In this document: positions 9,270 through 36,527 of the stretch, piece by piece
Layout: each line of letters starts with the position of its first letter
Numbering within the stretch: the stretch's first letter is position 1
Source of the DNA: Dokdonella sp.
Lineage (GTDB): Bacteria > Pseudomonadota > Gammaproteobacteria > Xanthomonadales > Rhodanobacteraceae
Length of the DNA stretch: 36,527 nucleotides
Assembly (NCBI GenBank): GCA_019634795.1
Contig: JAHCAR010000023.1
Coordinates: forward strand, 1-36,527
Direction of reading: 5' to 3'
The notes under the pieces: generated by a model
Seen by the model: the letters and a program-made list of their open reading frames with translations, nothing else
What the model was told of the DNA's origin: nothing
The model's database searches: none
Position numbers and translations under genes: made by a program

Positions 9270-9353
9270 GATTCCATCCCTGAGGGTGCAAAGGTGCGCA
9301 GTATATCTTGCAATCGAGAAACAATGATTAAAGTCACAGACCCGACGAAGTCT

Positions 9354-10045: not shown

Positions 10046-10075
10046 TCCCGAAATCCCGTGAGTGATGCCGAACAA

Positions 10076-10320: not shown

Positions 10321-10419
10321 GAACGAGGCAAGTGCGCTTGTACCGTGGCCGTAAACACCGGCGCCGCGGCTCTGGATGCCAGTGCGTTCAGAAGGAGCGG
10401 CCAGCCCCTGGCTGGACCC

Positions 10420-11853: not shown

Positions 11854-12837
11854 TTGAACCCACCTGTCCCGAACGAATCGCTTCAGCCCAGCCTGCTGTG
11901 GCCGCGTTGCCGCTGCGGGCCGCTCGTGATCGATTTCGAGCTCGGACGCGTCGACCGCAACGGGGAATCCATTGTCCTGCAACCCATTCCGCTGCGCATC
12001 CTGGCGATGCTGCTCGAACGCCCGGGCCGCCCAGTCAGCCGCGAACAACTGCACCGGGCCATCTGGCCCGCCTATCCGCTCGACAGTTTCGAACGCAACC
12101 TCTACACGGCAATGCGCAAGTTGCGCCGCGCAATCGGCGACGATGCGCGCACGCCTGCGCTCGTCGAGACACTTCGCGCCAAGGGCTATCGCTGGTGTGG
12201 TCCGGCGCCGACACCCGACGACCCAGCCGGGCACGCGCCCGCCGAGCCAGTGGCGGACGCGCCGACGTCCGCCGCTTCGCCCTCGCTGCGTCCGCTGCGA
12301 GCATTTCTCCACCGCATCGGCACGGCATGGAAAGTCCGCGGTGCCTACCTGCTGCCGACCTTGGCTCTGGCCGCCGTTCTCGCCCTCTCGCTACGCTCCA
12401 TCCTGGAATCGAAGCACGATGCGCCGGCCGGGAATGCCGACTCCATTGCCTTGACCTTGCGCCCCGCGACACTTTCCACGCGCCCCGAGGTCCAGGCGCT
12501 CGAAAACGCGCTGGCGGCCCGCTATCGGCTGTACGACCCTTCGAAACCCGAACATGCGCCGGCAGCCACCGTCCATGTCTGGTTGTCGCCGGATGGGATC
12601 CAGCTGCGCGTTTCGGGCAATCAGGTATCCGACGCGACGGGCGAGGCCATTGCCCTCGACGCACCGCTCGCGATCGAACAAGCGCTCTTGCGCATCGGCA
12701 TACTCGCGCCTGCAGCACGCCTCAGCACGCAATCGCCTGCGCTCACGCCGCCCCACGAAGCGCTGCTGCGCAAGGCCGACGCCCGCATTGCAAGCGGACG
12801 TGAGGACGCACTCGTGTCGATCCGCTCCGCGCCGTAG
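11854..12837 (+). CDS. CadC/ToxR-like membrane transcriptional regulator
   Basis: The product is 327 residues. Residues ~20-115 form an OmpR/PhoB-type winged-helix domain: VIDFELGRVDRNGE, LRILAMLLERPGRPVSREQL, NLYTAMRKLRRAIGDD and VETLRAKGYRW. A Pro/Ala-rich linker leads to one membrane segment at ~164-186 (AYLLPTLALAAVLALSLRSI), and ~140 residues follow outside. This is the one-component layout of CadC/ToxR, where a periplasmic signal controls DNA binding by the cytoplasmic domain. The start must be TTG 11854 or later, since an in-frame TGA sits at 11845; GGGAG upstream is a distant ribosome site. The C-terminal region is short compared with relatives that carry TPR repeats, so the gene may be truncated at its 3' end. 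It is the only + strand gene after the helicase and runs against the 3' end of the RHS frame. Confidence 0.82.
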   Translation: MNPPVPNESLQPSLLWPRCRCGPLVIDFELGRVDRNGESIVLQPIPLRILAMLLERPGRPVSREQLHRAIWPAYPLDSFERNLYTAMRKLRRAIGDDARTPALVETLRAKGYRWCGPAPTPDDPAGHAPAEPVADAPTSAASPSLRPLRAFLHRIGTAWKVRGAYLLPTLALAAVLALSLRSILESKHDAPAGNADSIALTLRPATLSTRPEVQALENALAARYRLYDPSKPEHAPAATVHVWLSPDGIQLRVSGNQVSDATGEAIALDAPLAIEQALLRIGILAPAARLSTQSPALTPPHEALLRKADARIASGREDALVSIRSAP

Positions 12838-15800
12838 GCGAATCCGCTGCAACCCGCTTGGCCGCCATGCATGGGGCGAACTCGGCAACGCATTGTGCTG
12901 CGCGATCGTGCCGCTTCGCTCGCTGAATCTGGGGTGCGTAAATCTGGGTGTCGCCTTAATGCGTGAAACTGGGTGTCGTTTGACAAGGACGCGCGGGGTG
13001 TCGAGGTGATCCGGTTCGACGGCGAAGACGGCGACGGTGCCTGCATTCTGGCCGCCGTGGCTGGCAATCCAGGCACTCGGCTTGATCAGGGCGACCGGGG
13101 TGTCCTCGAGCCAGACGTGTTCGGCGATCAGTGCGCCGCTGTCGCTGTATTCACCGAACAGGTGGCCGGCCTCGTCATAGACGTATTGGCTGCCGCTGCC
13201 GGCATCGGCCGGCTCGGTGCTGCCCGGCCCTTGTGGGCACGCACCGCCTGCGCTGGCCTTGCACACGCGCTCGCCAAAGGCATTGGTCGCGTAGCGGGCA
13301 ATGACCGTGTTGGTGCTCTGCAGGCGCGCGCTGGCCATGCGGTTGCGCGCGCTGTAGGTGTAGGCGTGGATGCCGTCGCTGGTGGTGTTGCCGGCGGCGT
13401 CATGGCTGCGTGAGACGCTGCCGACGGCCTCGAGCCGGTTGCTGGTCGGCGCGGTGGTGTAGGCACTAGTGCTGCCGTTGCGAGTTTCCTCGCTGCGGTT
13501 GCCGGTGGCGTCGTAGTGCCAGCCGAGGCCAAGCTGGGCCAGCGGGCCTTGCGTGGCGGCATTGCTGGCCTCGTTCAGGCGGTCCTGGCCGTCGTAGCCG
13601 AAGCTCCAGTTCGCGGAGGACGAGGTGGCCGGGGTGGTGCCGTCTTCGCTGGCGGTATCGACCAGGCCCGTGATGCGGTGGCTGGCATCGTAGCCGAGCT
13701 GGCGATAGGCGTCACCGAGCGTGTGGTGCTCGATGCGCCCGTCGGTATCGAAACTTCGTTCGTAGCGGAAGCCGTTCGCATTCGGCCCCTCGGTCCAGGC
13801 CTTGGGCTCGCCGAACGGGAAGGTCTCGATCTCGCGCACGATCGTGACGCCGTTGACCGTGATCGTGAGGATCCGGCCATCGGCGCCGTAGGCATAGCCG
13901 ATGACGGCGCCGCTCGGCAGGGTCGTCGCATCGACCCGGCCGGCGCTGTCGTAGTGGTGGTTCGTGGTCTTGACCAGGGCGGCCGAGCCATCGCCGAGGC
14001 GCTGGCCGCGCTCGAGGACGCGGCCATGGCGGTCGTACCTGAGGCTCAGGATACCGGCGCCATCGCTGAAGCGGACCAGGCGGCCGCGCGCGCCTTCCCC
14101 GCCGATCAGTGGATCGTCATAGGTGAAGGCCAGCGTTTCCTCGACGCTGGCCAGCGCAGCCGGATCCGTCGGCGAGGCCGGGCCGTACTGGATCTGTGCG
14201 ATGCGATCGAGGGCATCGTAGGCATAGATGCCGCGCTGGTTGCGCGCATCGGTACGTACGGCGAGGTTGCCGGCCGGGTCGTAGCGGTGGCTGGTCAGGC
14301 CGGTGTCCGGACTGGTCAGCGTTTCGAGTTCGTCGAAGCCGGTGTAGAGGTAACGGGTGACGAGGTTGCGCGGGTCGGTGACCCGGTTCAGGTTGTCCTG
14401 GACATCGTAGCCGTAGTCGATCTGCGCATGATCCGGATCGGTCTCGGCCAGCACATCGGTATGACGCAGGCGATCGAGCTCGTCGTAGTGCTGCGTGGTG
14501 ACGTGGCCGAGCGCATCGGTGATGGTCTTCTCATTGCCGGTGCCGTCATAGGTGAAATGGGTCGATTCATCGGGATCGGTGCCATATTCGGCCTCGACCC
14601 GACCCAGCACGTCTATGTGCCGGTTGACCACCTGGACGAGTTGGTCGTCGGCATCGAAGGTCTCTTCCTTGACCCTATTGCCCAGCGCGTCGAGCGTGTA
14701 GTGGACATGCCGGCCGCGGCTGTCGGTAACGTCGGTCAGGCGATCGGCGATGTCGTAGTCATAGTCGAGATAGCTTTCGTCGGCCAGGGTCAGGCGATCG
14801 ACTGTGCCGCTCGGCGTGTAGTCGAACCGCGTCGTCTCGCCGGGATCGTTCTCGTCGATCCTGTTGATCACGTGGGTCAGGCGGCCGCGTGGGTCGTAGC
14901 GGTATTCAGTAATCTGGCCGTTGGCATCGATGCGCTTGAGCAGGCGCGCATCGTCGTCGTACTCGGTGTAGTGTGACTCATTGCCCTCGCCGTCGGTCAT
15001 GAGGATGAGGTTGCCCGTAGCCGGGTCGTAGTCCCAGCTACTGGCGTCGTTGACGTCGGATCGCGGGCCATCAAAGCCCGTCAGCTGGCCATTGCCGTCA
15101 AAGTCGGTTGTCCAGACGCGTGTTTCGGTGCGCGCGGTCACCGTGCGCGATTGCAGATTCCCTTCGTCGTCGTAGACGAACACCGTATGGCGCGTGCCGC
15201 CTTCTATCGGCTCGAAGGTTTCCAGCGGCAGGAACCAGAATGGGTGCCAGATGGTTGTCGTGACGCGCTGCAGGGGCGTGCCCGCAGCTTCGGTGAGGGT
15301 TTCGATCAGTCCGCGACTGTTGCGCCCATAGCGCGTGATGCGACCTTCGAAATCCTTGCGGCTGGCGATCAGGCCACGCGGATCATAGGTCGTCTCGGCG
15401 GCCATGCCACCGCCGCAGCTGCCGCATGGCTGCGTGACCTTGTGCAGATACTTGCGCTTGTTGTCCGTCACGAATTCGTAAACACGCTCGGTGCCGAGCG
15501 GATCCGTTTCGATGGTGCGGTCTTCCTCGTAGCGGAATCTGTAGAGCTCGATTCCGCCGGGCTTGCCGCTCGACAGCACGCGGCCTCGGTGATCATAGGT
15601 CCAGGTGACATAGCGCTCGCCGCGCTCATCGGTGATGCCGGTCAATGCGTAGCGTTGGGTGACGTCCTCGTAGTGGTACTGGCGGGTCGTGGTATCGGGA
15701 TAGGTCACCTTGCTCAGATTGCCAAAGCCATCGTGCTCGAATGAAATCTGGCGGTGCGCCGGATCCTCGACCCCGGACAGATAACCCGTGGTCGGATCAT

Positions 15801-18800
15801 AGGAAAATTCCAGCGTGCGCCCGAAGGTATGAGTCACGCTAGCCGGACGACCGCGGTCATCATAGGCCAGGGTGTGGGCGAGACCGGCACGGTTGGTGAT
15901 CGAGAGCAGGCGCCCTTCCGCGCTGTAGTGCTCGGTCGTGTCCTGCGGCGTGTAGTGCAACCAGCCCGTGGTGGTGCCGCCACTGACCAGGCGCTCGATT
16001 CTGCCGGGAACGTTGCCGTCCGAAATGTAGGCAGTATTCCGCCACGTGAACTGCGTCCAGCCCCCGTCCTCGCGCATGATCAGGACCGAGTCCGGACGCT
16101 CGTTTGCGGGGAACGGGCTGCCGTCGACCGATTGCGGCAAGCGCAGGTTCTGGAAGTAGCTCGCCGACCACTTGGCCCCGACGTAGCCACTCAGGTTCGG
16201 CACCGCCGACATGTAGGTTCGTTCAAAATGCAGGGGAAAGGCGCCATCGCCCTGGTAGTCGTGCTCGGTCTGCCACTTGACCCCGCTGCCGATCGCCACG
16301 GGGTTGCCTCTCGGCGTATCGCTGCCGCGATCGTCGTCATGGCTGCCGTCACCGCCATCGAAGCCCAGCGCCGAAGCAATGCCTCCTGCACTGAGGTCAA
16401 CGCCAAGCCAGGAAGCGATCTTGCGCAGGCAGGGCGGCACGTAGGAACAGGCAATATTGTTGATGGTATCGATACCGAGCTGCGCCTTTTCCTCCGGCGT
16501 AAGCGAGCCCCATTCATCGATGATCGAGCTCAGCCACATCGACACTTCGTAGACGGCATAGGCTATGCCCACGGCAATGAGCACGGCGTCGATAACCACC
16601 AGGACCGGAATGATCGGCGCAAAGATCGCGCCCAGGGCTGCGGCCACCGTCTCGAAGGCCGCGAGGCGGCCGATATAGCGGAGCAGGAACCTTTTGATCG
16701 ACTCTATGATCCTGGTGTTGCAAAGAATATAGAGCGCTACGGCGACCACGATGCAACCGACATTGATACCGCCGGACAGCCCGCCCTCGATGCGTTGCAG
16801 CGAGTTGCCTGTCTGCGGGTCATAGATGACATAGCCCGCTCCGCGCCATCGGCCGTAACTGACCTCGCGCTCGTGGGCGACGACGATCAACCCGGCGTTC
16901 ACGCTTTGGCGAATTTCATCTTCGGCGTAACTGGACAGATTCAGCTGGCCGAGGGCGACACTGAGGTTGTCGCGACTGATCTGGAAGATACGCTGTCCGT
17001 TGTCGATGGCCAGCTTGAGGATCGTCGAGGCCGATATGCCGAGGCCCTGCTGGTAGGTACCGGTCAACAGCGGCCAGATGGCGCTTTCCGCCATCGAACC
17101 GGTCGAGCCGATATGCAGCGACATGCGGGTACGATCTTCGGCATTGCGCACGGTCAGGCCGATGCGAGCCGCCTTGACATCGGTAACCTGTCCGGCGACG
17201 AAGCCCGAACGCGGAATGCCGAAGAAGTAGGAGACTTCGTAACTCTGGGCGAAGGCGCCAATCGAAGGCAGGCGCAAGGCCACCGCGTCAGCAGAGCGTG
17301 CTGCCTGTTCTTCGAGGTGATCCGATATCGCCCAATAGAGCAGGCCACCGTAGTAGAGCGCATCGCGTGTTGGCAGGCTGGCCATGTCGGGAAGGCCCGC
17401 GCCTTCGCGCTGGACCCGATCAGGACGCATGCCGGCCAGGTCAGGGACCAGTGCGATGGTGCTGCCCGCGGCGAAGCGGTAGGCCTCGGTGGTCGTCCGC
17501 CTGCCGCTGGCGTCGCGCACGTCGACGTGCCAGAACTGCATGGTGCCCATGCGCGTGGCGCCTGATTGCCAGAGCACTTCGTTATCGAGCATCAATCGCG
17601 GAACCACGTTGAGCTGGCCGAGCGGGAGCGTTTCGGCATGGCTGGCCGCGTAGGTGGCCATGGCCTGGGCATCGGCGTCGGTCGCCGGTGCGTAGTCCAC
17701 ACCGAAATGATGCGCGCCGAGACGCACCATCGGCACGCTGACCTGCGCACTCGGTGAACCGTAATTGAGCGCCGATTCGTCCGCGTAGTAGCGGATCTCG
17801 ATCGTCTGCCTCAGCGTTGCAGGAAGCTCTGCGTAGCGGGCAACCGTGGACGATCGCAACGGGTAAGGCAGGGCGCCCGCAAGAATCAGGCTGTTGATCG
17901 GACGGATCGTGCGCCGGTCATTGAAGCTTTCGCCGGTGATGTCCGGAATGGCCGCGTACATCTCCTCGCCGAGGTCCTGTGCCGTGGCACCCATGGCCCG
18001 GTTCATTTCGTCGAAATTGAAGCCTGTGATGCCGCCGGTGGAGTCGACCTGGATTGCATCGGCGAAGGTCTGCGCGATCTGGCGACGCGATTCGAGCGTG
18101 TGCTCGCGCCAGGGATAGGCGGCGACATAGTCGAACTGCTTGAAGGCAACCTCGAATGGCACCCATTGGTCGGGGACGCGATTGATCGCCCCGCGCGAGG
18201 GGATGAAGTCGACCCAAGCTTCGACCCAGACATGCTCGAAACGAACCGCGACAATGCGGCCACCGGAGATGACGCTGGCGGCGGGAATACCGCCCTTCTG
18301 CATGAGTTCCACCGCCATCTGCGGCGTCGCGACGTTGCCGAGCCAGTTCTGGACCTTGTCGATCGGCAGCTCGACGATGCTCTTGGCGTAGCGGGCGGGC
18401 ACGCCGGAGGTGCGCAACAAGGCCAGGGTGAGACTGGCGATGTCGAAGGCGTTGCCACGACGGCTCAGCAAGGTCTGGTCGGCACCCTGCACCGAGCCGA
18501 AGGTCGGATGGAATTCGACGTTATCGTAGACCCAGTTGCGTATCGCCACCGGGTTGCCACCCAGGGACTGGGCCAGGGCCTGGATCGCCGGTGTGAACTG
18601 GGCGTCCGGTGTTTCTGCCAGTTCGCCGGGTCCGGGCGGATCGGTGATCGAATCGGGCGGAAGCGCGCCCTCGGTCTCGGGTTCCTGCGGGGCTGCCACA
18701 TCATCGAGAGTGGCGAACGAGGTCGGTAGCGCGGACTTGTCGATGGCACGCCATGCGCGTGAGCGGGTCTGTCCGGCAAACCAGTCAGAGAGATTGGCAA

Positions 18801-19329
18801 GGGAAGCGCTGACATCGGAAACGCTGGCGCGCGTGTCGCGCAGGGGCTCGATAAGGCTCCGGAATGTCGCTGCACGCGAAAGCACTTCCGACAGGAGTGC
18901 CTCGTGGCGGGCGACGATCGCCGCGTCAACGCCGCTCTCGGCCATCTGCTCTGCTTCGGCACGCCAGTCTTCCTCGATTTCCGATTCAAAATCGCCGAGT
19001 TCGTCGACATCGGAAAGAATCCGCAGCGTCAGCGCATTGGGCTCAGTGTCGCCCGTGCCGGCCTGGACGCTGGCAGCCGAAGGTTTCGGAGCCCCGACCG
19101 GTTGCAGGCGGGCGAGTTCGGCTGCCACCGATTCCAGTCGATTGGCCATGGTGCGCACACGCGCATCGCGATCGCGCGCATTCTGCGCGGCTGCGATTGC
19201 CGCGGCGTACTCCGAATGTTCTGCGGCCACCGCGCGCGCCATGTCGAGATGCGAGAACCACATGACCGACGCGATGCCGAGCGCCAGTGAGAGGCGACGG
19301 GCGAAACTCCGAAATTGGTTTGCAGGCAT
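12391..19329 (-). CDS. RHS/YD-repeat protein with transglutaminase-like domain, C-terminally truncated
   Basis: The frame has 2312 codons. It has a signal-peptide-like N-terminus (residues ~1-36), then a helical region, a transglutaminase-like domain at ~250-400 (NWVYDNVEFHPTFGS, RRGNAFDIASLTLALLRTSG, RFEHVWVEAWVDF) in which Ala replaces the nucleophilic Cys, a hydrophobic multi-span segment at ~855-945, and a DUF6531-type RHS entry at ~1005 (GNPVAIGSGVKWQTEHDYQG). YD repeats follow to ~2115 (for example YDALDRIAQIQYG, YDELDRLRHTDVL). In a normal RHS protein the segment after HLDTPRVLV leads to the RYYDP...DPLGL end and a variable toxin. Here that is missing: the frame passes into short direct repeats at ~12985 and then reads ~198 codons antisense, largely through the regulator. 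The shell-closing end and toxin are therefore lost. It is the last gene of the operon, 4 nt after the previous stop. Confidence 0.88.
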   Translation of the reverse strand: MPANQFRSFARRLSLALGIASVMWFSHLDMARAVAAEHSEYAAAIAAAQNARDRDARVRTMANRLESVAAELARLQPVGAPKPSAASVQAGTGDTEPNALTLRILSDVDELGDFESEIEEDWRAEAEQMAESGVDAAIVARHEALLSEVLSRAATFRSLIEPLRDTRASVSDVSASLANLSDWFAGQTRSRAWRAIDKSALPTSFATLDDVAAPQEPETEGALPPDSITDPPGPGELAETPDAQFTPAIQALAQSLGGNPVAIRNWVYDNVEFHPTFGSVQGADQTLLSRRGNAFDIASLTLALLRTSGVPARYAKSIVELPIDKVQNWLGNVATPQMAVELMQKGGIPAASVISGGRIVAVRFEHVWVEAWVDFIPSRGAINRVPDQWVPFEVAFKQFDYVAAYPWREHTLESRRQIAQTFADAIQVDSTGGITGFNFDEMNRAMGATAQDLGEEMYAAIPDITGESFNDRRTIRPINSLILAGALPYPLRSSTVARYAELPATLRQTIEIRYYADESALNYGSPSAQVSVPMVRLGAHHFGVDYAPATDADAQAMATYAASHAETLPLGQLNVVPRLMLDNEVLWQSGATRMGTMQFWHVDVRDASGRRTTTEAYRFAAGSTIALVPDLAGMRPDRVQREGAGLPDMASLPTRDALYYGGLLYWAISDHLEEQAARSADAVALRLPSIGAFAQSYEVSYFFGIPRSGFVAGQVTDVKAARIGLTVRNAEDRTRMSLHIGSTGSMAESAIWPLLTGTYQQGLGISASTILKLAIDNGQRIFQISRDNLSVALGQLNLSSYAEDEIRQSVNAGLIVVAHEREVSYGRWRGAGYVIYDPQTGNSLQRIEGGLSGGINVGCIVVAVALYILCNTRIIESIKRFLLRYIGRLAAFETVAAALGAIFAPIIPVLVVIDAVLIAVGIAYAVYEVSMWLSSIIDEWGSLTPEEKAQLGIDTINNIACSYVPPCLRKIASWLGVDLSAGGIASALGFDGGDGSHDDDRGSDTPRGNPVAIGSGVKWQTEHDYQGDGAFPLHFERTYMSAVPNLSGYVGAKWSASYFQNLRLPQSVDGSPFPANERPDSVLIMREDGGWTQFTWRNTAYISDGNVPGRIERLVSGGTTTGWLHYTPQDTTEHYSAEGRLLSITNRAGLAHTLAYDDRGRPASVTHTFGRTLEFSYDPTTGYLSGVEDPAHRQISFEHDGFGNLSKVTYPDTTTRQYHYEDVTQRYALTGITDERGERYVTWTYDHRGRVLSSGKPGGIELYRFRYEEDRTIETDPLGTERVYEFVTDNKRKYLHKVTQPCGSCGGGMAAETTYDPRGLIASRKDFEGRITRYGRNSRGLIETLTEAAGTPLQRVTTTIWHPFWFLPLETFEPIEGGTRHTVFVYDDEGNLQSRTVTARTETRVWTTDFDGNGQLTGFDGPRSDVNDASSWDYDPATGNLILMTDGEGNESHYTEYDDDARLLKRIDANGQITEYRYDPRGRLTHVINRIDENDPGETTRFDYTPSGTVDRLTLADESYLDYDYDIADRLTDVTDSRGRHVHYTLDALGNRVKEETFDADDQLVQVVNRHIDVLGRVEAEYGTDPDESTHFTYDGTGNEKTITDALGHVTTQHYDELDRLRHTDVLAETDPDHAQIDYGYDVQDNLNRVTDPRNLVTRYLYTGFDELETLTSPDTGLTSHRYDPAGNLAVRTDARNQRGIYAYDALDRIAQIQYGPASPTDPAALASVEETLAFTYDDPLIGGEGARGRLVRFSDGAGILSLRYDRHGRVLERGQRLGDGSAALVKTTNHHYDSAGRVDATTLPSGAVIGYAYGADGRILTITVNGVTIVREIETFPFGEPKAWTEGPNANGFRYERSFDTDGRIEHHTLGDAYRQLGYDASHRITGLVDTASEDGTTPATSSSANWSFGYDGQDRLNEASNAATQGPLAQLGLGWHYDATGNRSEETRNGSTSAYTTAPTSNRLEAVGSVSRSHDAAGNTTSDGIHAYTYSARNRMASARLQSTNTVIARYATNAFGERVCKASAGGACPQGPGSTEPADAGSGSQYVYDEAGHLFGEYSDSGALIAEHVWLEDTPVALIKPSAWIASHGGQNAGTVAVFAVEPDHLDTPRVLVKRHPVSRIKATPRFTHPRFSERSGTIAQHNALPSSPHAWRPSGLQRIRLRRGADRHECVLTSACNAGVGLAQQRFVGRRERRRLRAEACCRREYADAQERLFDRERCVEGNGLARRVGYLIARNAQLDPIRRQPDMDGGCRRMFGFRRVVQPIAGRQRVFERLDLGARGKCRGAQGQGNGVGIPGRRIVLRFQDGA
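12920..12978. repeat. Short direct repeats at the RHS break point
   Basis: Two 19-nt units, TGCGTAAATCTGGGTGTCG (12935-12953) and TGCGTGAAACTGGGTGTCG (12960-12978), repeat with a 25-nt period. A third, poorer copy begins at 12920. They lie exactly where RHS homology ends. Repeated motifs of this kind occur at the ends of some insertion sequences, so this may be the scar of a lost element; that is inference, and no transposase gene is present. Confidence 0.6.
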
Positions 19330-19333
19330 GTCC

Positions 19334-26929: not shown

Positions 26930-29900
26930 TGGGATTCGAATCCATTCTTGAACAGGGTGTCGACGACCGGAGCACCGACGAAATCGAGCTCAACCTCGGC
27001 TTCGTCGGAGAGATTTCCCGGATCGGCGATGCGGTAGCGGAAGCTGTCCTGCAGTGGTCGAGTCGTCGTCAAGGTGTAGACGAACGAACCGTCCAGGCCG
27101 AGGTTGAGCTGTCCGTGTTCGGGCGCGCGCACGAGGCTGGGAACAAGCGTTTCACCGTCCGGCTCGATATCGTTGGCGAGCAGGCCGCTGCCTGCCTCCA
27201 CCACAAGCTCGGTTGCAGATTCCGGAACCTCGTAGTAATCGGGGAGTGCTTGCGGCGGATCGTCGACCGGTAGCAGGGTGATACGTACTTCGACCGGTAG
27301 GGACTCCAGTTCGCCGTCGCTCACTGCATACGGAATGCTGACGTCGCCGACTGCATTGCGCTCGGGCACGAAGCGGACATGGCCTCCGGGCAGCACCTCG
27401 AGCATGCCTGTCGGCGGCGACTGCAGCACGACCAGTGAAAGCGGCTGTCCTTCCGGATCGACATCGTTGGCCAGCAGGCTCTCGAGCTGGCGCGTATCCA
27501 GCACACTGTCTTCGGCGATGGCATAGGCTTCGCCGACGGCAACAGGTCGCTGGTTGCCGGACGAAGCGACATCGATGATGGCTCGACCGAGCGCGGATTC
27601 CTCCCCGTCGCTGACCCGATAGGCGAACTCGTCCCGACCGGTGAATTCGGCATCGGGCACGTAGGTAAGCGATCCGTCCGCATGCAGGTCGAGCGCGCCA
27701 TGGCTGGTGCCGGCATCGAGTTCGACCGTGAGCGCCTGTCCTTCGACGTCGCTGTCGTTGGCCAGTACCCCCTCTGCCGCTACGACCTGTAGCGAGCCAT
27801 TTCGCTCGACAAGATAGCGATCGGTCTGGGCCTGTGGCGCATCATTGACTGCTTGCACATCAATAGACGCAGACACCGGTTCGCTGCTCTGATCACCATC
27901 GCTGACTGCGTAGTCGAAGGCATCCGGACCAAAGTAGTCCGGATCCGGGCGATAACGGAAATGGCTGCCCTCGAGTTCCAGGGTTCCGTGTGTCGGCGCC
28001 TCGCGAAGCGCGACAAACAGCGCGTCGCCATCCGGATCAGTGTCGTTTTCGGTGAGTCCGCCTACGTTGTCGCTGTCGAGGACTCCATCTTCCTCGATCG
28101 AATAGGATTCGCCCGTAGCGACAGGAGGATGGTTCTGGCCACTGCCGACTGTCAGCGTCACCTGCGCCACGTCGCGAGTCGCGCCATCGGTCGCGGCATA
28201 GCGGAATCGGTCCTCGCCCGTGAACGCGGGGGCCGGCTGATAGGAAAATCCGCCATCGACGGATACCTGGACCTGGCCATGCGCGGGGGCATCGACGAGT
28301 TCGACGCCGAGTGTGTCGCCATCGACATCGGTGTCGTTGGCGAGAAGGCCGTTCAGGGCATCGATCACGAGCGTCTGGTCGCGGACCGCGTGGTAAAGAT
28401 CCGGTGAAGCCCCGGGCGGGTCGTTCTGGGCAAAGACCTCGATGCTTGCGGTAGCGATTTCGGACAGTCGTTCTCCATCGCTTACGCGATACAGGATGCG
28501 GTCGCTGCCATTGAAGTTTTCTGCAGGAAGATAGGTGAAGTGCCCGTCCGTCTGCCAGCCGAACGTGCCGTGTTCGGGCGCGGAATCGAGAACGAGGCTC
28601 AATGGCGCGCCTTCGAAGTCATGGTCGTTGGCAAGCAGGCTACCGGAGGAATGGGAATCCAGCAGATGGTCCTCGAGTACGGCAAATTGCTCGCCGACGG
28701 CCACAGGCGGGACGTTTGACGTCGATCGAACGTCGAGAGTGACACGACCCAGCTCTATAACGCTCCCCGCGGATGCCGCGTAGGTAAATCCCGTGACGCC
28801 GGCAAAGCCCTCGGGCGCCGAGTAGTGGAAGGCGCCGTTGGCGTCCAGGGTGACCGTGCCCGTATCCGGGGGGAGAATCAGTGTGGCGGAGAGCGATGCG
28901 GCACCGCTGACTTGATCGTTGCCGAGTACGCCGGGAGCGGCGACCGTCGTGGATGGCCCCTCGAATGCATAGAAGTCATCCTCGACCGTGACCACAACGG
29001 CCGGCGCAACCGGTCGAACGATGACACTGACCGCGGCCGCAGAAATCGCTCCCAGACCATCGTCGACCTGATACTGGAATTGGTCGACGCCGGCAAAGAT
29101 GCCGTCGGGGACGTAGACGAAGGCGCCATCGAACTGCAGGTCGACTTGACCGTGCTGCGGCGGTCCGACCAAGGCGACAGTGAGAGCGGGGCCATCGACA
29201 TCGAGATCGTTGGACAGGACGCCCGAGCCGGCATCGACGCTCAGCGTCTGATCCTGTGCGATTTCATATTCGTCCGCATGTGCCAGCGGCGGATCATTGA
29301 CCGGCGTCACGAGGATTTCGACGGTGTCCTCGGAGGACAGCTGGCTCTCGTCGAATACGCGATACCTGAACTGATCGCGTCCGTTGGCATCAGGATCCGG
29401 TGTGTAGGTAAAGCTGCCATCCGGCATGAGGAGCGCTTGTCCGCGCAGCGGCGGCTCGATCAGTTCGGCGTTGATCAAGAGCTCTCCATCCACTTCCCTG
29501 TCGTTGCGCAGCACTCCCTGTGGCTCCGGCGCAACAAGCACTTCGTCCTCGCGGGTCCTGTACGTGTCGGGCTCGGTATAGGGCGCATCGTTGACCGGGA
29601 GGACGGTGATGCCGACATGGCCGACGGCGTTGCCGGCAACGCCATCCCGAACGGTGTAGAAAAACTCGTCCTGGCCGAAGAAATTGGAATTCGGGGTGTA
29701 GCGGAATCCGCCATCCCTGCGCAGTTCGACCCGACCATTGCAGGGCGCACAACCGTTGCTCGCGAAATAGGCCTGGAGCGAATCCCCGTCGATGTCGGTG
29801 TCATTGGCGAGAACCCCTTCGGCGGTCGAAACGGCCAGCACGATGTCTTCGTTTACAACGTAGTTGTCCGCACTCGCGACAGGGGGTGTGTTGACACGGA

Positions 29901-32900
29901 TCTGCACGGTGGCGGGCTCGCTCTGGCGACCCGTCGCATCGATGGCACGATAGGTGAAGCTGTCCGAGCCCGAGTAGTCCGTGCCGGGGGTATAGGTGAA
30001 GGTGCCAACCGGACTGAAGACAATCGTGCCGTGTGCGGGCGGAATCGCAAGCTCTGCGTAGATTGGGAGAAGGTCCACGCCACTGGCTGCGGCCCATGGA
30101 GCGGCGTGCGGATACGGGCGCGTATCCGGATCGAAATCGTTGTTCAGTACCGCTTGGGTGCTCGTCGTGACGACCAGCGCGGTGTTCCTCGGCGTTATGT
30201 AGTTGTCATCGGCCGCAATCGGCGCATCCGGCACGGGCAACACGGTGAAACTCACATAGCCATTCGTGCTTTGCGTACCGTCGTCAACGATGTAGCGTAG
30301 CGTCTCGACTCCATAGAAATGCAGTCGAGTGGTGACTGTCGTCGCGAGCGGAGCCGCGAGATCATCGACGTGCAGCGTGACGTAATGCCCGGGTTGGCTG
30401 TCAAAGCTGTCGCGGAGGTAATGGATCGGATCGCCATCGGGATCGAAATCGTTGGTCAGCGGGTCGGGGGATATTTCTTCCACGCTGTCCTCGGTCACCG
30501 TATACGCATCGGGATTGGCAACCGGCGGCGCGTTGGTCCGCAGGGTTACCGTCGCGATGTCACCGATTCCGGTACTGATCTGGTAGATGCGATAGGTGAA
30601 GGTATCGACACCCGAAAAATCCTGGAATGGCGTATAGCGCAGCCTTCCGGTCTGGGAATTCAGATCGGCTGAGCCGTGCTGGGGAAGAGATATGATTTCG
30701 AAATTGACCGGGTAGTCGCTGTCATAGTGGTCATTGAAGGAAACGGGCTTAGAACCCGAATCGAAGACCGTATTGCGCAGCACTCCATAGGCATCATCCA
30801 CCGCCTCGACGCCGTCATTCACGGGGCCGACCGAGATACTGACAACGGCGGCATTGCTGACGCTGGTGCCATCGTAGATCTGATACACAAAAAATGTGTT
30901 GCCGTAGAAATTCGCCCTTGGCCTGGCCGTGAAGGAGCCGTCTGGCGCCAGTGTCACGCTCAAATTGTGATTGTCGAAATCGACCAGAAACGCCTGCAGG
31001 AATTCGGGTGGCGTATCGGCATCCGTGTCGTTGATCAGTACCCCGGACTCCGCAGCGACGACCAACGTCTCGTCCTCAAGGATGGAATACGCGTCCGCAT
31101 TCGCCCGAGGCAAGCTGGTGATGCCGACGGCCAGGGTGACGTTGCCGAAGTTTGACGAGGAATGTCCGTCCGTGACCTGGTAGGTGAACGTATCGATGCC
31201 CATGTAGCCGGAATCGGGGTCGTACCGGAACGTTCCATCGGAATTCAGCACCAGGGTGCCGTGCTCAGGCACGGTACCGGGGATGACGCTCAGCTCGTCA
31301 TTCTCCGGTGCATCATGATCGTTGGCCAGGAGGCCGAGCGTCGGGTCGAGGATCTCAATGGGCGAGTCGACGTCCCCCAGGTAGACATCATTCGTTGCCG
31401 TTGGCGGTTGAGTCACATCGACCTGCACGGTGGCCTGGCTTGCCTCACCGGATGCATCGACCGCTTCGTATGTAAACGAGTCGACGCCTCGAAAGTTGAC
31501 CTCGGGCACGTAGGAAAGCGAGCCATCGGCACGCAAAAGGATTTCGCCATGCTCGGGGCTGCCCAGCAGACGTGCGACGAGCACCTCTCCGTCGATGTCG
31601 GAATCATTGACCAGGACTCCGGGCGCCGGAATGTCGAGCGCGACATTCTCATCGGTGAGGTAGGCGTCGCCGTTTGCAATCGGCGGATCGTTCACAGCAC
31701 GAATTGTGAGCGCCACCTCGACCGGGTAGGAGTTCGTACTCGAGTCTTCGAGGCGGTAGGAAAAGGAGTCCGGCCCAAAATAGTCAGGCGACGAAGGTCG
31801 GTATACGAAGCTGCCGTCGTTCGCCATTTGCACCAGGCCATGGGCAGGCTGCCCGGTGACGGCAATGCGCAGGACACCCACGGGGATGGCGCTGTCGTTG
31901 CCCAGCACGCCGGGCGCGTCGACGACCAGGATGTCACCCTCGTTTAGCGAGTACGCATCCGGCAGCGGCGCGAGGTGATCATTGACATGCACGGTGACCG
32001 ACGCCTGACTGCTCAGGCCACCCGGATCGACGGCTTCATAGACAAAGCTGTCGGTGCCGACGAAGTCGGGAAGCGGCGAGTAGCGGAAGCTCCCATTGGC
32101 ATTCAGGGTCAGGGCGCCCATTTGCGGATCGCTGACGACCCGTGCGACCAGCGGATCCCCGTCGGGGTCCGAATCGTTGCCCAAGACGCCGGGCTGCGAA
32201 ACAACGAGGTCGTGGCCAGTGTCCACGACGAATTGGTCCGGCGCTGCAACAGGGGGCTCGTTGACGTCGTTGACTGAAATCGTGACCCTCGCGGGCAGCG
32301 ATCGGATGCCGCCGGTGTTCAATCGATAGTAGAAATGATCCACGCCGCCATGCGCAGCGGGCACATACTGAAAGCCGCCGTAATCGCCGAGGACAAGATC
32401 GCCAAGGGCAGGGGCCGAGTCCAGTTCGACCTCGACAGATTGACCGGGGTCGATCATGTCGTTCGCGAGTAATCCCGATCCGGCCGCAACGACCAGAGTC
32501 TGGTTGTCATTGACAGAGTAGTTGTCGTCGACCGCATGACTCGCCTCGTCGACATTGAGTGTCACGCTGGTTGCGGCACCGACCAGCGTCGCCGCGCCTG
32601 CCGAATACTCGAACCGGTCCGCGCCTACGAAGTCCTGTTCGGGGGTATAGACGAAGCCTCCATCCGCAGAGAGCACGATCGTGCCATGCGCCGGCAGCGC
32701 CCTAAGTACCGCAAACAGGGCGCCACCCTGAGGATCATGATCATTGGCAAGTACGCCATTCGCCGCTTCGACGACAAGCGAACCATTGGTCGTTGCCGCA
32801 TAGATGTCCGGCTCCGCGACAGGGCCGGTCGCCTCATTGTCTGCAATCTCGACGATTGCAGAGGAAGCGGGTGCAAATGGGATCTGTGCTTCGGGCGTTG

Positions 32901-34845
32901 CCAGCAAGAAGCGGCGCGTTCCCGTGGGCGCATCGACCGCAACGTCCGCCTCGAATTCGATCGAGGTTCCATCGGGCGCATGCACGATGTCTCGCAATAC
33001 CACTCCATCGGGTGGCACGATCGATACCTCGCTGGCGAGATCCAGCCCGATGCCTGCAATGGTGACGTGGACGGATGTTCCCCTGGAAAAGAGATCCGGC
33101 GATACGCTGTGGGCAAAGGCTCCCCGAACAACACCAAGGATCGGCGCGCTCAGCAATGCATTCCTTTCCTCCGATTCGGGGGCAGGCCTGAGCACTCCCA
33201 ACACCGGCGCAACAAAAGGTGTCAGCAAGTCAGTCCTATCAACGATGAACAGCGTATTGGACGGGAGCAACACATTGCCGCTATTGCCGGCTGGACTTTC
33301 CAGTCTTACAAGGCGGGGGCCCAATGCCGCACTGCCAGTAGAACGGAGGGAAAGCCGCGCAATCCCGTCGCTGACGATCTGCAAGTCTTCGATGACCAGA
33401 TCGGTGCCAGGAAGCACATTCGCTGCATTGACCTGGCTGAGATGCTCACCCTGCAACTCGATAGTCTGGGGTGTGCCGTCGCGCAACAGATAGTTTGGCG
33501 TCATCGCATGGAGCTGCGGCGGCGCATCCCGGATCACGAGCAGTCGCGGCGCATCGAGCCGGCCCGTCGAATCCAAGGCTGACACTCGACGCGGCAGGAG
33601 CTCGGCGTCAGCGGCGACGTGGATGTCGACGGAAACCTCCCCGTCGCTGACGGCAATGCTCGAACCGTCAACTTCGATACCCTGATCCGGGCTCAGGCTG
33701 ATCAGCGTAGTTCCACCGAGCCCGGTGCCGATCAAGCGCAGCCGCACCGTCTCTGCCGGCGATACGGTTTCGGGCACCATCTGGACAATCGCAGCACCCT
33801 TGGTGACGCCAACTGGAGCAGAGGCCATGAATCGGAGCGTTGCGGCCTGGGCGACAGGGCGGTCGACGCCCAGTGGCACGGAAACGAAGGGACCGCGCCC
33901 GAGCAGGGAACCGTCCGCAACGTGCAGCTGGTTGGCGGGAGTCGGCAGGTCGCTGGATGTGCCGCTCTCGGTAATGACCTGGACCAGTCGATCGACGAGT
34001 GTGGCGTCCGCGCCGACGGCAATGGACACGGTGACGAGCGTTCCTTCGTCATTGGAGACAGGGGTGCTGCTCAACTCGATACCATCTGTGGGGGTCAGCC
34101 GCACCTGCGGTTGCTCGGAGAAACCGTGGACGCCGGCTGGCGGCAAGCCGCGCAGATTGGTGCCTCGAATCTCGAGCAGATAGCCTTGTCCTCTTGCAAG
34201 AAGATTGGGCGTCACACTGTCGATGCGCGGGACGGGCGCTGTCAGCAGGATCTGGGTAGAGTCCGCGCGATCGTCCGGCAGCGCGTTTCCGCTCTGATCG
34301 AGGATGCGGAGTCGACGCAATCCGGGTCGGGCCGAAGTGGCTACCTCAACAACAGCATCGATTCGTTCACCGCTGGGGTCAACCTGGAATTCCACGACGC
34401 TGGTGTCGTCAGCCGGATCTAGAACAAGGTGTTGCACCGTCTCAAGTCCGCGACCGTGGATCACGAGGCCTTGGCCAGCTTGGCCTATGGACAGGCGATC
34501 TGGTTCGAGCCCAAAGACCACCGCTCCCCTGGTCACGCCGAGCAGGCCTGATGCGAAGAAGTTCAAGTCATTTGGCGGCGTAACGGATCCATACTGCACA
34601 CCGAGCTGAGGTGAAATCAGCAGGTGACTTGCAGGATTCGCGTCAGACACCCTTGTGACACCCAAGGCGGCATTGGCCAGCACGTCGCCTGGGCGTAACA
34701 GAAGCCGTGGGGTTTCGAGGGAACTTGCGTCCTGGTTCTGCTGCCTGACCTCGATGTCAGCGGCATTTGCCGCGCACCCGAGACCACCAACCAGAAGCAG
34801 CAACAGGCAACGGCCGACGCGCTGCCGAAATCCGCAGAGAGGCAT
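26926..34845 (-). CDS. Giant exported protein with IPT-like domains and twenty tandem cadherin-like (tandem-95) repeats
   Basis: The product is ~2639 residues from ATG 34845; TTG 34878 and GTG 34866 are in-frame alternatives. The ATG start gives a good signal peptide (MPLCGFRQRVGRCLLLLLVG, cleavage near ANA-ADIEV). Residues ~60-660 hold about five IPT/TIG-like domains (LARGQGYLLEIRGTNLRGLP, SRGTSVHVTIAGIGLDL), several introduced by an LGVxRG-type motif. From ~670 to ~2620 come twenty repeats of ~95-100 residues with the pattern DxYxVxEDxxLxV...GVLANDxDxDGD...HGxLxLxxDGSFxYTP...GxDxFxYxxxDG, the calcium-binding bacterial cadherin-like type used in large adhesins. It ends VDTLFKNGFESQ, a short tail like that of the beta-propeller protein at 7005-9269. 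It lies 47 nt after the glycine-rich gene and overlaps the next start by ATGA. A cell-surface or biofilm adhesin role is inferred from the repeats. Secretion route is unclear: no RTX or T1SS C-terminal signal was seen. Confidence 0.92.
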   Translation of the reverse strand: MPLCGFRQRVGRCLLLLLVGGLGCAANAADIEVRQQNQDASSLETPRLLLRPGDVLANAALGVTRVSDANPASHLLISPQLGVQYGSVTPPNDLNFFASGLLGVTRGAVVFGLEPDRLSIGQAGQGLVIHGRGLETVQHLVLDPADDTSVVEFQVDPSGERIDAVVEVATSARPGLRRLRILDQSGNALPDDRADSTQILLTAPVPRIDSVTPNLLARGQGYLLEIRGTNLRGLPPAGVHGFSEQPQVRLTPTDGIELSSTPVSNDEGTLVTVSIAVGADATLVDRLVQVITESGTSSDLPTPANQLHVADGSLLGRGPFVSVPLGVDRPVAQAATLRFMASAPVGVTKGAAIVQMVPETVSPAETVRLRLIGTGLGGTTLISLSPDQGIEVDGSSIAVSDGEVSVDIHVAADAELLPRRVSALDSTGRLDAPRLLVIRDAPPQLHAMTPNYLLRDGTPQTIELQGEHLSQVNAANVLPGTDLVIEDLQIVSDGIARLSLRSTGSAALGPRLVRLESPAGNSGNVLLPSNTLFIVDRTDLLTPFVAPVLGVLRPAPESEERNALLSAPILGVVRGAFAHSVSPDLFSRGTSVHVTIAGIGLDLASEVSIVPPDGVVLRDIVHAPDGTSIEFEADVAVDAPTGTRRFLLATPEAQIPFAPASSAIVEIADNEATGPVAEPDIYAATTNGSLVVEAANGVLANDHDPQGGALFAVLRALPAHGTIVLSADGGFVYTPEQDFVGADRFEYSAGAATLVGAATSVTLNVDEASHAVDDNYSVNDNQTLVVAAGSGLLANDMIDPGQSVEVELDSAPALGDLVLGDYGGFQYVPAAHGGVDHFYYRLNTGGIRSLPARVTISVNDVNEPPVAAPDQFVVDTGHDLVVSQPGVLGNDSDPDGDPLVARVVSDPQMGALTLNANGSFRYSPLPDFVGTDSFVYEAVDPGGLSSQASVTVHVNDHLAPLPDAYSLNEGDILVVDAPGVLGNDSAIPVGVLRIAVTGQPAHGLVQMANDGSFVYRPSSPDYFGPDSFSYRLEDSSTNSYPVEVALTIRAVNDPPIANGDAYLTDENVALDIPAPGVLVNDSDIDGEVLVARLLGSPEHGEILLRADGSLSYVPEVNFRGVDSFTYEAVDASGEASQATVQVDVTQPPTATNDVYLGDVDSPIEILDPTLGLLANDHDAPENDELSVIPGTVPEHGTLVLNSDGTFRYDPDSGYMGIDTFTYQVTDGHSSSNFGNVTLAVGITSLPRANADAYSILEDETLVVAAESGVLINDTDADTPPEFLQAFLVDFDNHNLSVTLAPDGSFTARPRANFYGNTFFVYQIYDGTSVSNAAVVSISVGPVNDGVEAVDDAYGVLRNTVFDSGSKPVSFNDHYDSDYPVNFEIISLPQHGSADLNSQTGRLRYTPFQDFSGVDTFTYRIYQISTGIGDIATVTLRTNAPPVANPDAYTVTEDSVEEISPDPLTNDFDPDGDPIHYLRDSFDSQPGHYVTLHVDDLAAPLATTVTTRLHFYGVETLRYIVDDGTQSTNGYVSFTVLPVPDAPIAADDNYITPRNTALVVTTSTQAVLNNDFDPDTRPYPHAAPWAAASGVDLLPIYAELAIPPAHGTIVFSPVGTFTYTPGTDYSGSDSFTYRAIDATGRQSEPATVQIRVNTPPVASADNYVVNEDIVLAVSTAEGVLANDTDIDGDSLQAYFASNGCAPCNGRVELRRDGGFRYTPNSNFFGQDEFFYTVRDGVAGNAVGHVGITVLPVNDAPYTEPDTYRTREDEVLVAPEPQGVLRNDREVDGELLINAELIEPPLRGQALLMPDGSFTYTPDPDANGRDQFRYRVFDESQLSSEDTVEILVTPVNDPPLAHADEYEIAQDQTLSVDAGSGVLSNDLDVDGPALTVALVGPPQHGQVDLQFDGAFVYVPDGIFAGVDQFQYQVDDGLGAISAAAVSVIVRPVAPAVVVTVEDDFYAFEGPSTTVAAPGVLGNDQVSGAASLSATLILPPDTGTVTLDANGAFHYSAPEGFAGVTGFTYAASAGSVIELGRVTLDVRSTSNVPPVAVGEQFAVLEDHLLDSHSSGSLLANDHDFEGAPLSLVLDSAPEHGTFGWQTDGHFTYLPAENFNGSDRILYRVSDGERLSEIATASIEVFAQNDPPGASPDLYHAVRDQTLVIDALNGLLANDTDVDGDTLGVELVDAPAHGQVQVSVDGGFSYQPAPAFTGEDRFRYAATDGATRDVAQVTLTVGSGQNHPPVATGESYSIEEDGVLDSDNVGGLTENDTDPDGDALFVALREAPTHGTLELEGSHFRYRPDPDYFGPDAFDYAVSDGDQSSEPVSASIDVQAVNDAPQAQTDRYLVERNGSLQVVAAEGVLANDSDVEGQALTVELDAGTSHGALDLHADGSLTYVPDAEFTGRDEFAYRVSDGEESALGRAIIDVASSGNQRPVAVGEAYAIAEDSVLDTRQLESLLANDVDPEGQPLSLVVLQSPPTGMLEVLPGGHVRFVPERNAVGDVSIPYAVSDGELESLPVEVRITLLPVDDPPQALPDYYEVPESATELVVEAGSGLLANDIEPDGETLVPSLVRAPEHGQLNLGLDGSFVYTLTTTRPLQDSFRYRIADPGNLSDEAEVELDFVGAPVVDTLFKNGFESQ

Positions 34846-34892
34846 GCTGCACCGGCGCCTGCGCACCGCGTTCCCCAACGAACCGGGCGCGC

Positions 34893-36293
34893 CTAGAGGG
34901 TCACCCTCTTTCCGCTGGCCGTGATGAGTGTTGTGGTCGTGTTGCCACTCATGCTGGCCGCAAGTTCCACCGAGATAACCTTCTCACCATCGGTGTAGCG
35001 CGAAAGCGCCTGTTGCTGCGTGCCTGCGACCGAGTAGCTCAGTGTTGCGAGCAACACACTCGGACCATCCGGAATCGATACGTTGGCCGTTGCGGTCGCC
35101 GCATCAACCGTGCCCTGGAGCGCGCTCGAAATGCTCATTGTCGACGCACCATGAGGCGGAGTGACGATAACCGATATGGTCGTTCCGAGCGGTACGCCGG
35201 TCGTCGCCAGTTCGACGGCAACCGGATTCGGCGCATTGGCTGGCAGGATGATGTCGGAATGGCCGGTAGGTTCCGCGGGTGCCGGCTGACCCGCCACTGC
35301 GGAAATGCGAATCGTCGGCAGACCATCGACGAAAAGGCTACCGGGCAGACCTTGCGTGTAGGGCGGGTTGGTACTTGCCGTGCGCTGGAAGGTCTCCGCT
35401 TCGAAGCGAATTCGCCCTGCTCCTCCGTCGGTGGTATTCGAATAGCTTGAAAACGCTCCGCCAATGCCTCCCACCGCGTTGACGGTGCCGTTGCCGGTGA
35501 GCGTCGTAGCGACGAGTCGGATTGCGCCACCGCTACCGCCACCACCGGTTGTGCCACCAGCGTTGACGGCGTTTCCGACGTCCCCACCTTTTCCGCCGTT
35601 GGCCAGGATGGTGCCGGTTACCTGCAATGTCCCACTGACTGCGATCAGTAGTGCCCCGCCACCGCCGCCACCGCCACTTCCGCCGAGGCTCAGAAACGCT
35701 GTTCCGCCGGCGCCACCCGATCCGCCAACCATGGGCAGGAGATCCGGGTTTGCATAGGTGTCGGATTGCGTTCCACCGCAACCGGCTGCCTCGCCTCGGG
35801 TACCGAAGGAACCGCCGCCGCCAAAGCAGTTGTAGGCAGTACCCGGAGCAGGGCGGCCGCCACCAGGGCCGATGCCTGCCTGTCCGTTGCGCGCATTGGC
35901 CGGCGTCGAATCGATGGTCCCACCGAGTCCGCCGGCATAGCCGCCAGGCCCGCCTTCGCCCGGCAGGCCATCATCGGCGACGTTTCCGTTACCGGCACCA
36001 TTTGCATCTGGCGCAGCCTGTCCGCTGACGTTGATGCCTCCTGCAATCGTCGCATCGCCGCTGACAAGGAGAGTCACCGGCGTATTGAGCGCATTGCGCA
36101 GGAATCGCACTGTGACACCGGAAGGGATGTTGATCGACGAATAATTCAGGATTCCGCTAGCGGGAACCTGTATTTCGGTGTCCACGTTGGGACTCAGTGC
36201 GCCGTCGCTTCCAGTGCTGCCGCTGTCGAACGCGAAAGCCGCTGTCGCAAAAAACAAGCACGCAATAGCGGCGCAAATAAGGCGACTGCCCAT
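34893..36293 (-). CDS. Glycine-rich secreted protein, first gene of the giant operon
   Basis: The product is 466 residues. ATG 36293 is preceded by GGGAGGGG and gives a signal peptide (MGSRLICAAIACLFFATAAF, cleavage near AFA-FDSG); the 12-codon upstream extension is rejected. Residues ~35-90 are beta-rich (DTEIQVPASGILNYSSINIP, VTLLVSGDATIAGGINVSGQ). Residues ~95-310 form a glycine-rich region with blocks such as GEGGPGGYAGGLGG, GGSGGGGGGG and NGGKGGDVGN between short beta strands, which looks like an irregular beta-helix or a glycine-turn stack. Residues ~325-466 form a separate C-terminal domain of Ig-like character (ISVIVTPPHGASTMS, TATANVSIPDGPSVLLATL). I recognise the style from exported proteins of environmental bacteria but not a function. 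It is first behind the promoter at 36411-36440 with a ~110-nt leader, so it may be the most abundant product of the operon. A stop-overlapping 6-bp hairpin (34895-34909) lies before the next gene. Confidence 0.85.
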   Translation of the reverse strand: MGSRLICAAIACLFFATAAFAFDSGSTGSDGALSPNVDTEIQVPASGILNYSSINIPSGVTVRFLRNALNTPVTLLVSGDATIAGGINVSGQAAPDANGAGNGNVADDGLPGEGGPGGYAGGLGGTIDSTPANARNGQAGIGPGGGRPAPGTAYNCFGGGGSFGTRGEAAGCGGTQSDTYANPDLLPMVGGSGGAGGTAFLSLGGSGGGGGGGALLIAVSGTLQVTGTILANGGKGGDVGNAVNAGGTTGGGGSGGAIRLVATTLTGNGTVNAVGGIGGAFSSYSNTTDGGAGRIRFEAETFQRTASTNPPYTQGLPGSLFVDGLPTIRISAVAGQPAPAEPTGHSDIILPANAPNPVAVELATTGVPLGTTISVIVTPPHGASTMSISSALQGTVDAATATANVSIPDGPSVLLATLSYSVAGTQQQALSRYTDGEKVISVELAASMSGNTTTTLITASGKRVTL

Positions 36294-36410
36294 ATTCCCC
36301 TCCCTTATGGGAAAACCAGACGAGAGCACGGCGCATTCGCCATTCGACGAATGTCACAGGTGCTTTCGAATCCTAATCCCTTGAATGCGGCCCCAAACTC
36401 CGCGGCCGGA
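36294..36410 (-). other. Untranslated leader of the giant operon
   Basis: About 110 nt separate the predicted transcription start (near 36404) from ATG 36293. Apart from the Shine-Dalgarno at 36297-36306 I see no strong hairpin or riboswitch-like pattern. Confidence 0.45.
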
Positions 36411-36440
36411 ATACTAGATAGGCAAACTGGAAGCTGTCAA
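36411..36440 (-). promoter_or_regulatory. Sigma70-like promoter of the giant secreted-protein operon
   Basis: On the - strand a consensus -35 TTGACA (36435-36440) is followed after 18 nt by TAGTAT (36411-36416) as -10. Surrounding sequence is AT-richer than the genes. It faces the glycine-rich gene with nothing in between, so it probably drives all four genes down to 12391. Confidence 0.7.
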
Positions 36441-36527
36441 CTCTTAACCGAGAAAAATCTTGTGCGGCCTTACACGAAACGCAGAGTACACAACGTGACG
36501 AATCTCTCGATATTCCAATAAGGGATC

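What the first reader, a model, noticed from the sequence alone, without database searches (positions are those of the whole stretch)
12391..36440. A 24-kb, four-gene operon encoding a matched set of giant surface proteins ending in an RHS shell
One consensus-like promoter precedes four same-strand genes: glycine-rich protein, twenty-repeat cadherin-like protein, toroid/FG-GAP/Calx-beta protein, and RHS protein. Junctions are 47 nt, an ATGA overlap, and 4 nt with an embedded AAGGAGG. Every product has a signal peptide. Tight coupling of such large exported proteins suggests a single assembly, for example a calcium-dependent surface platform that carries or displays an RHS capsule. I do not know a described system with this composition.
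Basis: partly seen in the sequence, partly recalled or inferred. Interest (0 to 1): 0.8.

Follow-up and report, generated by a model that had tools for sequence, protein, structure and literature searches.

The report
Giant surface operon carrying RHS toxin
A run of four genes for very large exported proteins, kept together in related bacteria, most likely builds a surface platform for an interchangeable antibacterial toxin, although in this genome the toxin gene has lost its tip.

Summary
The observation largely holds. Four adjacent minus-strand genes encode exported giant proteins. Their junctions, promoter-like site and leader are conserved in Dokdonella immobilis. The order 1-2-3-4 recurs there (86-94% identity) and in another family of the order (49-58%); dN/dS is 0.07-0.16.

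The better reading is a polymorphic-toxin locus. Gene 4 has an inactivated transglutaminase-like N-terminus (Cys to Ala in 10 of 10 aligned rows) before its RHS part, a toxin class described by Zhang et al. 2012. Relatives share this N-terminus up to a WxGxGY..TG..IxGG motif, then diverge: NucA/NucB DNase, DUF6310, weak HNH, hydrophobic domains. Two genomes hold arrays of cassettes with differing ends; D. immobilis holds RHS cassette copies.

What I did not find described is gene 4's partner: a gene-3-like toroid/TTR/CARDB protein lies beside 23 of 35 testable loci (6 of them weak or indirect). Genes 1 and 2 are rarer additions.

In the window the RHS gene stops before the RHS-core end and runs antisense into a regulator. 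Downstream synteny with D. immobilis argues against a gross chimera. Calx-beta was not confirmed. That genes 1-3 anchor or deliver the toxin is inferred.

The parts
36411..36440 (-). promoter-like site TTGACA-18-TAGTAT
   Evidence: hexamers unchanged in D. immobilis
36307..36493 (-). conserved upstream/leader stretch ahead of gene 1
   Evidence: local alignment with D. immobilis; no Rfam match; 19-mer from it has exact matches only ahead of this operon in G000 and G002
34893..36293 (-). gene 1: exported glycine-rich protein, no Pfam or NCBIfam match; ATG 36293
   Evidence: 6 of 200 genomes of the order
26926..34878 (-). gene 2: exported protein with 20 tandem-95/Big_9 cadherin-like repeats and tail LFKNGFESQ; start TTG 34878 or GTG 34866 more likely than ATG 34845
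19334..26929 (-). gene 3: partner protein; toroid, carboxypeptidase-regulatory (TTR-like), CARDB, FG-GAP, about six unassigned repeats, C-terminal hydrophobic segment plus basic tail
12391..19329 (-). gene 4 ORF: N-terminal transglutaminase-like module, pre-toxin motif, hydrophobic segment, DUF6531, RHS repeats; not RHS below about 12988
18151..18558 (-). inactivated transglutaminase-like domain (Ala at the Cys position, Glu at the Asp position)
16780..16848 (-). motif WRGAGYVIYDPQTGNSLQRIEGG, which marks the boundary with variable C-termini in relatives
12391..12987 (-). non-RHS tail of the gene 4 ORF, antisense to the regulator over 12391-12837
11848..12837 (+). Trans_reg_C (CadC-like) regulator ORF next to the truncated RHS end
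10420..11379 (-). sulfotransferase gene between the operon and the RHS remnant
10049..10333 (-). RHS fragment with in-frame stops (matches gene 4 aa 1732-1829), remnant cassette
9461..10075 (-). 204-aa double-CxxCG ORF after the remnant; possible relic immunity gene
   Evidence: no Pfam or NCBIfam match; found only in its own genome among 200 searched

Best explanation
The operon encodes a Sec-exported polymorphic-toxin system. Gene 4 is the toxin carrier: an inactive transglutaminase-like N-terminal module, a pre-toxin motif, a hydrophobic segment and an RHS shell that in intact relatives ends in the RHS core and a toxin domain. Gene 3 is its conserved partner, a secreted toroid/TTR/CARDB protein with a membrane-anchor-like C-terminus. 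It most likely docks or displays the carrier at the cell surface, with the transglutaminase-like fold as a binding module. Genes 1 and 2 are lineage-specific additions, a glycine-rich secreted protein and a long cadherin-like arm likely to reach neighbouring cells. On contact the toxin domain would enter the target. Shown: gene order, selection, loss of the catalytic Cys, variable ends, cassette copies. Inferred: surface docking, contact, delivery, bacterial target. In this genome the carrier has lost the core end and toxin, so this copy is probably not an active toxin.
For: Order 1-2-3-4 in G000, D. immobilis G002 (contig ends inside RHS) and G093; 1-2-3 to a contig end in G105 and G122; 2-3-4 in G110 and G342. 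dN/dS gene 1 0.08, gene 2 0.16, gene 3 0.12, gene 4 aa 1-1720 0.07. Cys to Ala in 10 of 10 rows, His kept in 10, Asp in 9. G110: six copies 83-97% identical over the 150 aa up to the motif end, then C-termini 26-41% identical in 14 of 15 pairs (shuffled mean 26), one pair 79%. G424: three of four copies had the motif; 65-97% before it, 24-28% after (shuffled 23). C-termini: NucA/NucB DNase 4e-14, DUF6310 8e-14. Rhs_assc_core in G093 and G192 and at four places in G002; RHS cassette copies and downstream ORFs on D. immobilis contig C60. Gene-3-like partner upstream of 21 and downstream of 2 of 35 testable loci.
Against: 12 of 35 testable loci showed no partner (5 are extra copies in genomes that also have a partnered copy). 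Six of the 21 upstream partners are weak or indirect: G246 matches the CARDB part only; G424 and G927 have one ORF in between; G759 has the toroid at the C-terminus; G573 lies about 1.1 kb away; G731 scores 59 bits. Eight of the genomes trained the partner profile. HNH matches in G093 (E 0.015) and G192 (E 0.002) are below Pfam cut-offs. The PT-HINT match in G993 lies in a different frame from its carrier ORF. Immunity genes are guesses from position: tested ones matched no family. Structure models were poor (pLDDT 51 and 35). The window gene lacks a toxin end. No experiment bears on surface location or delivery.
Confidence: 0.7

Rival explanations
1. The four proteins form a structural adhesin or matrix assembly in which RHS is only a surface filament, with no toxin role.
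For: Cadherin-like repeats, FG-GAP and glycine-rich protein; the window RHS has no toxin end yet aa 1-1720 are under strong purifying selection between two species.
Against: Relatives carry DNase-type and other unrelated C-termini at one boundary and arrays of cassette copies, which is the signature of polymorphic toxins.
Confidence: 0.12
2. In this genome the system is a relic: the carrier lost its toxin end and the downstream cassettes decayed, while genes 1-3 persist as surface proteins or are beginning to decay.
For: RHS similarity stops at about 12970-12988, Rhs_assc_core missing; RHS remnant with stops and an isolated double-CxxCG ORF. The missing end was not seen elsewhere in G000: its one Rhs_assc_core (C2) has no gene 4 similarity.
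Against: dN/dS over 1-1720 is low, so the loss would be recent; the genome is 85% complete, so an intact copy could be missing. This is compatible with the best explanation for the family.
Confidence: 0.5
3. The truncation is a local assembly error at a repeated RHS stretch.
For: Contigs of relatives often end inside RHS genes (G002, G105, G078, G192), and the break falls in a stretch shared by cassette copies.
Against: Non-RHS stretches 4971-5410 and 7009-9319 of the window match D. immobilis C60 downstream of its RHS array in the same order at 88-89%, so the contig is not a gross chimera. A small local error is not excluded.
Confidence: 0.2

Closest known systems
Inactive-transglutaminase RHS polymorphic toxins (Zhang et al. 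2012, PMC3482391, section 19)
   Same: Signal peptide, inactive transglutaminase domain, RHS repeats, several kinds of toxin C-terminus; anchoring role proposed there.
   Different: The section read does not mention a partner gene, a giant operon, or the many carriers without RHS found here; a find for toroid, squalene, carboxypeptidase, FG-GAP and cadherin in the held text gave none.
MafA/MafB of Neisseria (as described in PMC3482391, section 37 passages)
   Same: A non-polymorphic secreted surface protein encoded upstream of a polymorphic toxin, proposed to anchor it.
   Different: No MafB-N or MafA match; the partner is a toroid/TTR/CARDB protein, with giant additions in this lineage.
T6SS Rhs effectors (PDB relatives 7q97, 8cp6/Tse5, 8qja, 8h8a, 8uxt)
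   Same: RHS/YD shell.
   Different: No PAAR or VgrG domain in Pfam scan of gene 4; signal-peptide-like N-terminus instead.
WapA-type Sec-exported toxins (recalled; PMC12704120 seen as listing and abstract start only)
   Same: Sec export of an RHS-bearing toxin.
   Different: Gram-positive cell-wall setting; no matched partner operon known to me.

Membership tests
Polymorphic toxin systems | Conserved N-terminal module with exchangeable C-terminal domains | tested here: met
   Met in relatives, not visible in the window copy alone:
Polymorphic toxin systems | Orphan C-terminal cassettes beside the full gene | tested here: met
   G110 and G424 arrays, D. immobilis RHS copies; window has one RHS remnant
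Polymorphic toxin systems | Cognate immunity gene downstream | tested here: inconclusive
   Small ORFs follow most copies but those scanned matched no family; window ORF 9461-10075 is unassigned
Polymorphic toxin systems | Toxic activity | not testable with these tools
   needs experiments
Inactive-transglutaminase RHS toxins | Transglutaminase fold after a signal peptide with a lost catalytic residue, followed by RHS | tested here: met
RHS proteins | YD/RHS repeats | tested here: met
   9 RHS_repeat stretches
RHS proteins | Rhs_assc_core (TIGR03696) end | tested here: not met
   absent in the window gene; present in G093, G192 and G002
T6SS Rhs effectors | PAAR or VgrG N-terminus | tested here: not met
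Active transglutaminases | Cys-His-Asp triad | tested here: not met
   Ala at the Cys position in 10 of 10 rows
Calx-beta proteins (gene 3) | PF03160 match | tested here: not met
   no match at E up to 5

The most novel reading that the evidence does not exclude
The toroid/TTR/CARDB protein and the inactive-transglutaminase carrier are the two fixed parts of a distinct Sec-dependent toxin display system of Gammaproteobacteria and beyond: the partner anchors the carrier outside the cell, the carrier accepts RHS or non-RHS toxins at one motif, and some lineages add giant cadherin-like arms that set reach and target.
Probability: 0.35. Interest if true: 0.8.

Novelty: new variant of a known kind. 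Interest (0 to 1): 0.6.

Why it matters
How Sec-exported polymorphic toxins of Gram-negative bacteria are held at the surface and reach a target is open. A conserved secreted partner encoded next to them gives a concrete candidate for the docking part, and the shared motif gives a rule for finding the toxin boundary in many unannotated proteins of about 1000 residues. D. immobilis, a cultured environmental species, makes it testable.

Tried and rejected
Rejected: T6SS Rhs effector (no PAAR or VgrG in gene 4). Active transglutaminase (Cys lost). Calx-beta. A known riboswitch in the leader (no Rfam match). The window double-CxxCG ORF as a known immunity family. Gross chimera of the contig. A regulon sharing the leader: the 19-mer had one exact match in G000 and one in G002, plus one match with 2 mismatches in G002; none in G093.

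Led nowhere: structure models of gene 1 (pLDDT 51, 4 rows) and of the gene 4 N-terminal module (pLDDT 35, 3 rows) were too poor, so no fold search was run. PADLOC gave nothing useful. Eight literature searches found one relevant paper. The regulator search found many homologues of the DNA-binding part, most in longer frames, so whether the window regulator is truncated is unsure.

Fetched but not analysed: L119 (G073) and L132 (G002:C61 end). Two places above the 200-bit line (G721, G506) were not fetched.

Full report
What is there. The window is one whole contig of a genome in the same genus as Dokdonella immobilis. Four minus-strand genes run from 36293 to 12391. The 2/3 junction is an ATGA overlap and the 3/4 junction a 4-nt gap with an embedded AAGGAGG; both are the same in D. 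immobilis. The 1/2 gap is 47 nt only if gene 2 starts at ATG 34845, which D. immobilis lacks; TTG 34878 and GTG 34866 are shared, so the gap may be 14 nt. The promoter-like site is no rarer than chance as a scan hit (2 found, 3.4 expected), but its two hexamers are unchanged in D. immobilis inside an alignable stretch of about 187 nt.

Conservation. D. immobilis has all four genes in order at 91, 86, 94 and 92% identity, its contig ending inside the RHS gene. G093, a MAG of another family of the order, has all four at 58, 52, 54 and 49% with a complete RHS gene. G105 and G122 show 1-2-3 up to contig ends, G069 shows 2-3 to a contig end, and G110 and G342 show 2-3-4; G110 has another large gene in position 1. 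Of 6 of 200 genomes of the order with gene 1, four have gene 2 next; G216 and G062 do not. Between the two Dokdonella genomes dN/dS is 0.08, 0.16, 0.12 and, for gene 4 residues 1-1720, 0.07.

Gene 4 is a toxin carrier. Its transglutaminase-like domain has Ala at the Cys position in 10 of 10 aligned relatives, His in 10, and Asp in 9, with Glu in the window. Zhang et al. 2012 (PMC3482391; section 19 read whole, other passages by search) describe such inactive transglutaminase domains before RHS in polymorphic toxins. The module without regard to RHS occurs in 33 of 398 genomes of the order (a narrower three-row query), 24 of 369 of the class and 6 of 299 of the phylum (G000 and G022 are in both of the last two). 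Many are proteins of about 1000 residues without RHS. In G110, six copies are 83-97% identical over the 150 residues up to the end of a WxGxGY..TG..IxGG motif; their C-termini are then 26-41% identical in 14 of 15 pairs, where shuffled sequences give 26, and 79% in one pair. In G424, three of four copies had the motif: 65-97% before it, 24-28% after, shuffled 23. C-termini elsewhere match NucA/NucB DNase (4e-14) and DUF6310 (8e-14); HNH matches in G093 (0.015) and G192 (0.002) are below cut-off; five of ten C-termini scanned had nothing better than E 0.04. A PT-HINT match in G993 is in a different frame from the carrier ORF. Small ORFs follow most copies, several of them hydrophobic, and are candidate immunity genes by position only.

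The RHS end. G093 and G192 have the Rhs_assc_core end, and G002 has it at four places. On D. immobilis contig C60 the RHS end is followed by a tail that looks like a restriction-fold nuclease by inspection, an ORF, a second RHS copy in two frames with a related tail and a related ORF, and a third RHS fragment. The window gene lacks this end. Similarity to RHS stops at about 12970-12988, and the ORF continues about 200 codons, largely antisense to a plus-strand Trans_reg_C regulator. Further on come a sulfotransferase, an RHS fragment with stops and a double-CxxCG ORF. The only Rhs_assc_core elsewhere in G000 has no gene 4 similarity, but the genome is 85% complete. Non-RHS stretches 4971-5410 and 7009-9319 match D. 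immobilis C60 downstream of its RHS array, in order and at 88-89%, so the contig is not grossly chimeric; only the first 48 kb of C60 were compared.

The partner. I looked beside 42 carrier places: 19 with 150 bits or more, 19 further ones and 4 further ones with 200 bits or more. Seven could not be tested (contig ends, or not fetched: G105:C329, G192:C19, G515, G721, G506, G993, G976). Of 35 testable, 21 have a gene-3-like protein upstream, 2 downstream (G299, G714) and 12 none. Six of the 21 are weak or indirect: G246, G424, G927, G759, G573, G731. Of the 12, five are extra copies in genomes that also have a partnered copy (G110, G057, G574, two in G424); the others are G069:C31, G192:C33, two in G643, G022, G476 and G740. 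G022 has a weak match to gene 3 outside the core, nearby. Sources. The profile was trained on eight of these proteins; those eight were also found by direct comparison with gene 3. The smallest partners (474-527 residues) keep little beyond a toroid and an Ig-like domain, and one ends in an IPTL-CTERM motif. No formal chance model was run; gene 3 matches occur in 20 of 99 genomes, so adjacency by chance should be rare.

Mechanism. Most likely the carrier is exported by Sec, held at the surface by gene 3 through the transglutaminase-like module, and presented by long arms (genes 1 and 2 here). Export, docking, contact and target are inferred. Structure prediction did not help.

Novelty. The carrier is a known kind. 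The partner, the shared motif as a toxin boundary, the carriers without RHS and the giant operon were not found in eight searches of an open-licence library, which is not proof that they are undescribed. I file it as a new variant of a known kind.

Noticed in passing
window 26926-34878 (C-terminus), 7005-9269 (C-terminus): Exported proteins end in FxxGFE-like tails (LFKNGFESQ, RIYDHGFD), as do neighbours in G093, G069 and G342; possibly a sorting tail. Not tested.
   Followed up: no
window 271-3447: Large plus-strand ORF that looks like an SNF2-type helicase with a PLD-like N-terminus, by inspection only.
   Followed up: no
L081:6631-13223, L126:7750-14263: Partner proteins in G424 and G927 are split in two and carry an MG2 domain beside a toroid protein, recalling alpha-2-macroglobulin.
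   Followed up: partly
window 10420-12837: A sulfotransferase and a Trans_reg_C regulator lie between the RHS gene and the RHS remnant, where D. immobilis has RHS cassettes.
   Followed up: partly
L047:6153-7067: A transposase-like gene sits inside the G110 cassette array (by inspection).
   Followed up: no
window 7005-9269: Exported 754-aa protein with 89% nucleotide identity to a syntenic stretch in D. immobilis.
   Followed up: partly
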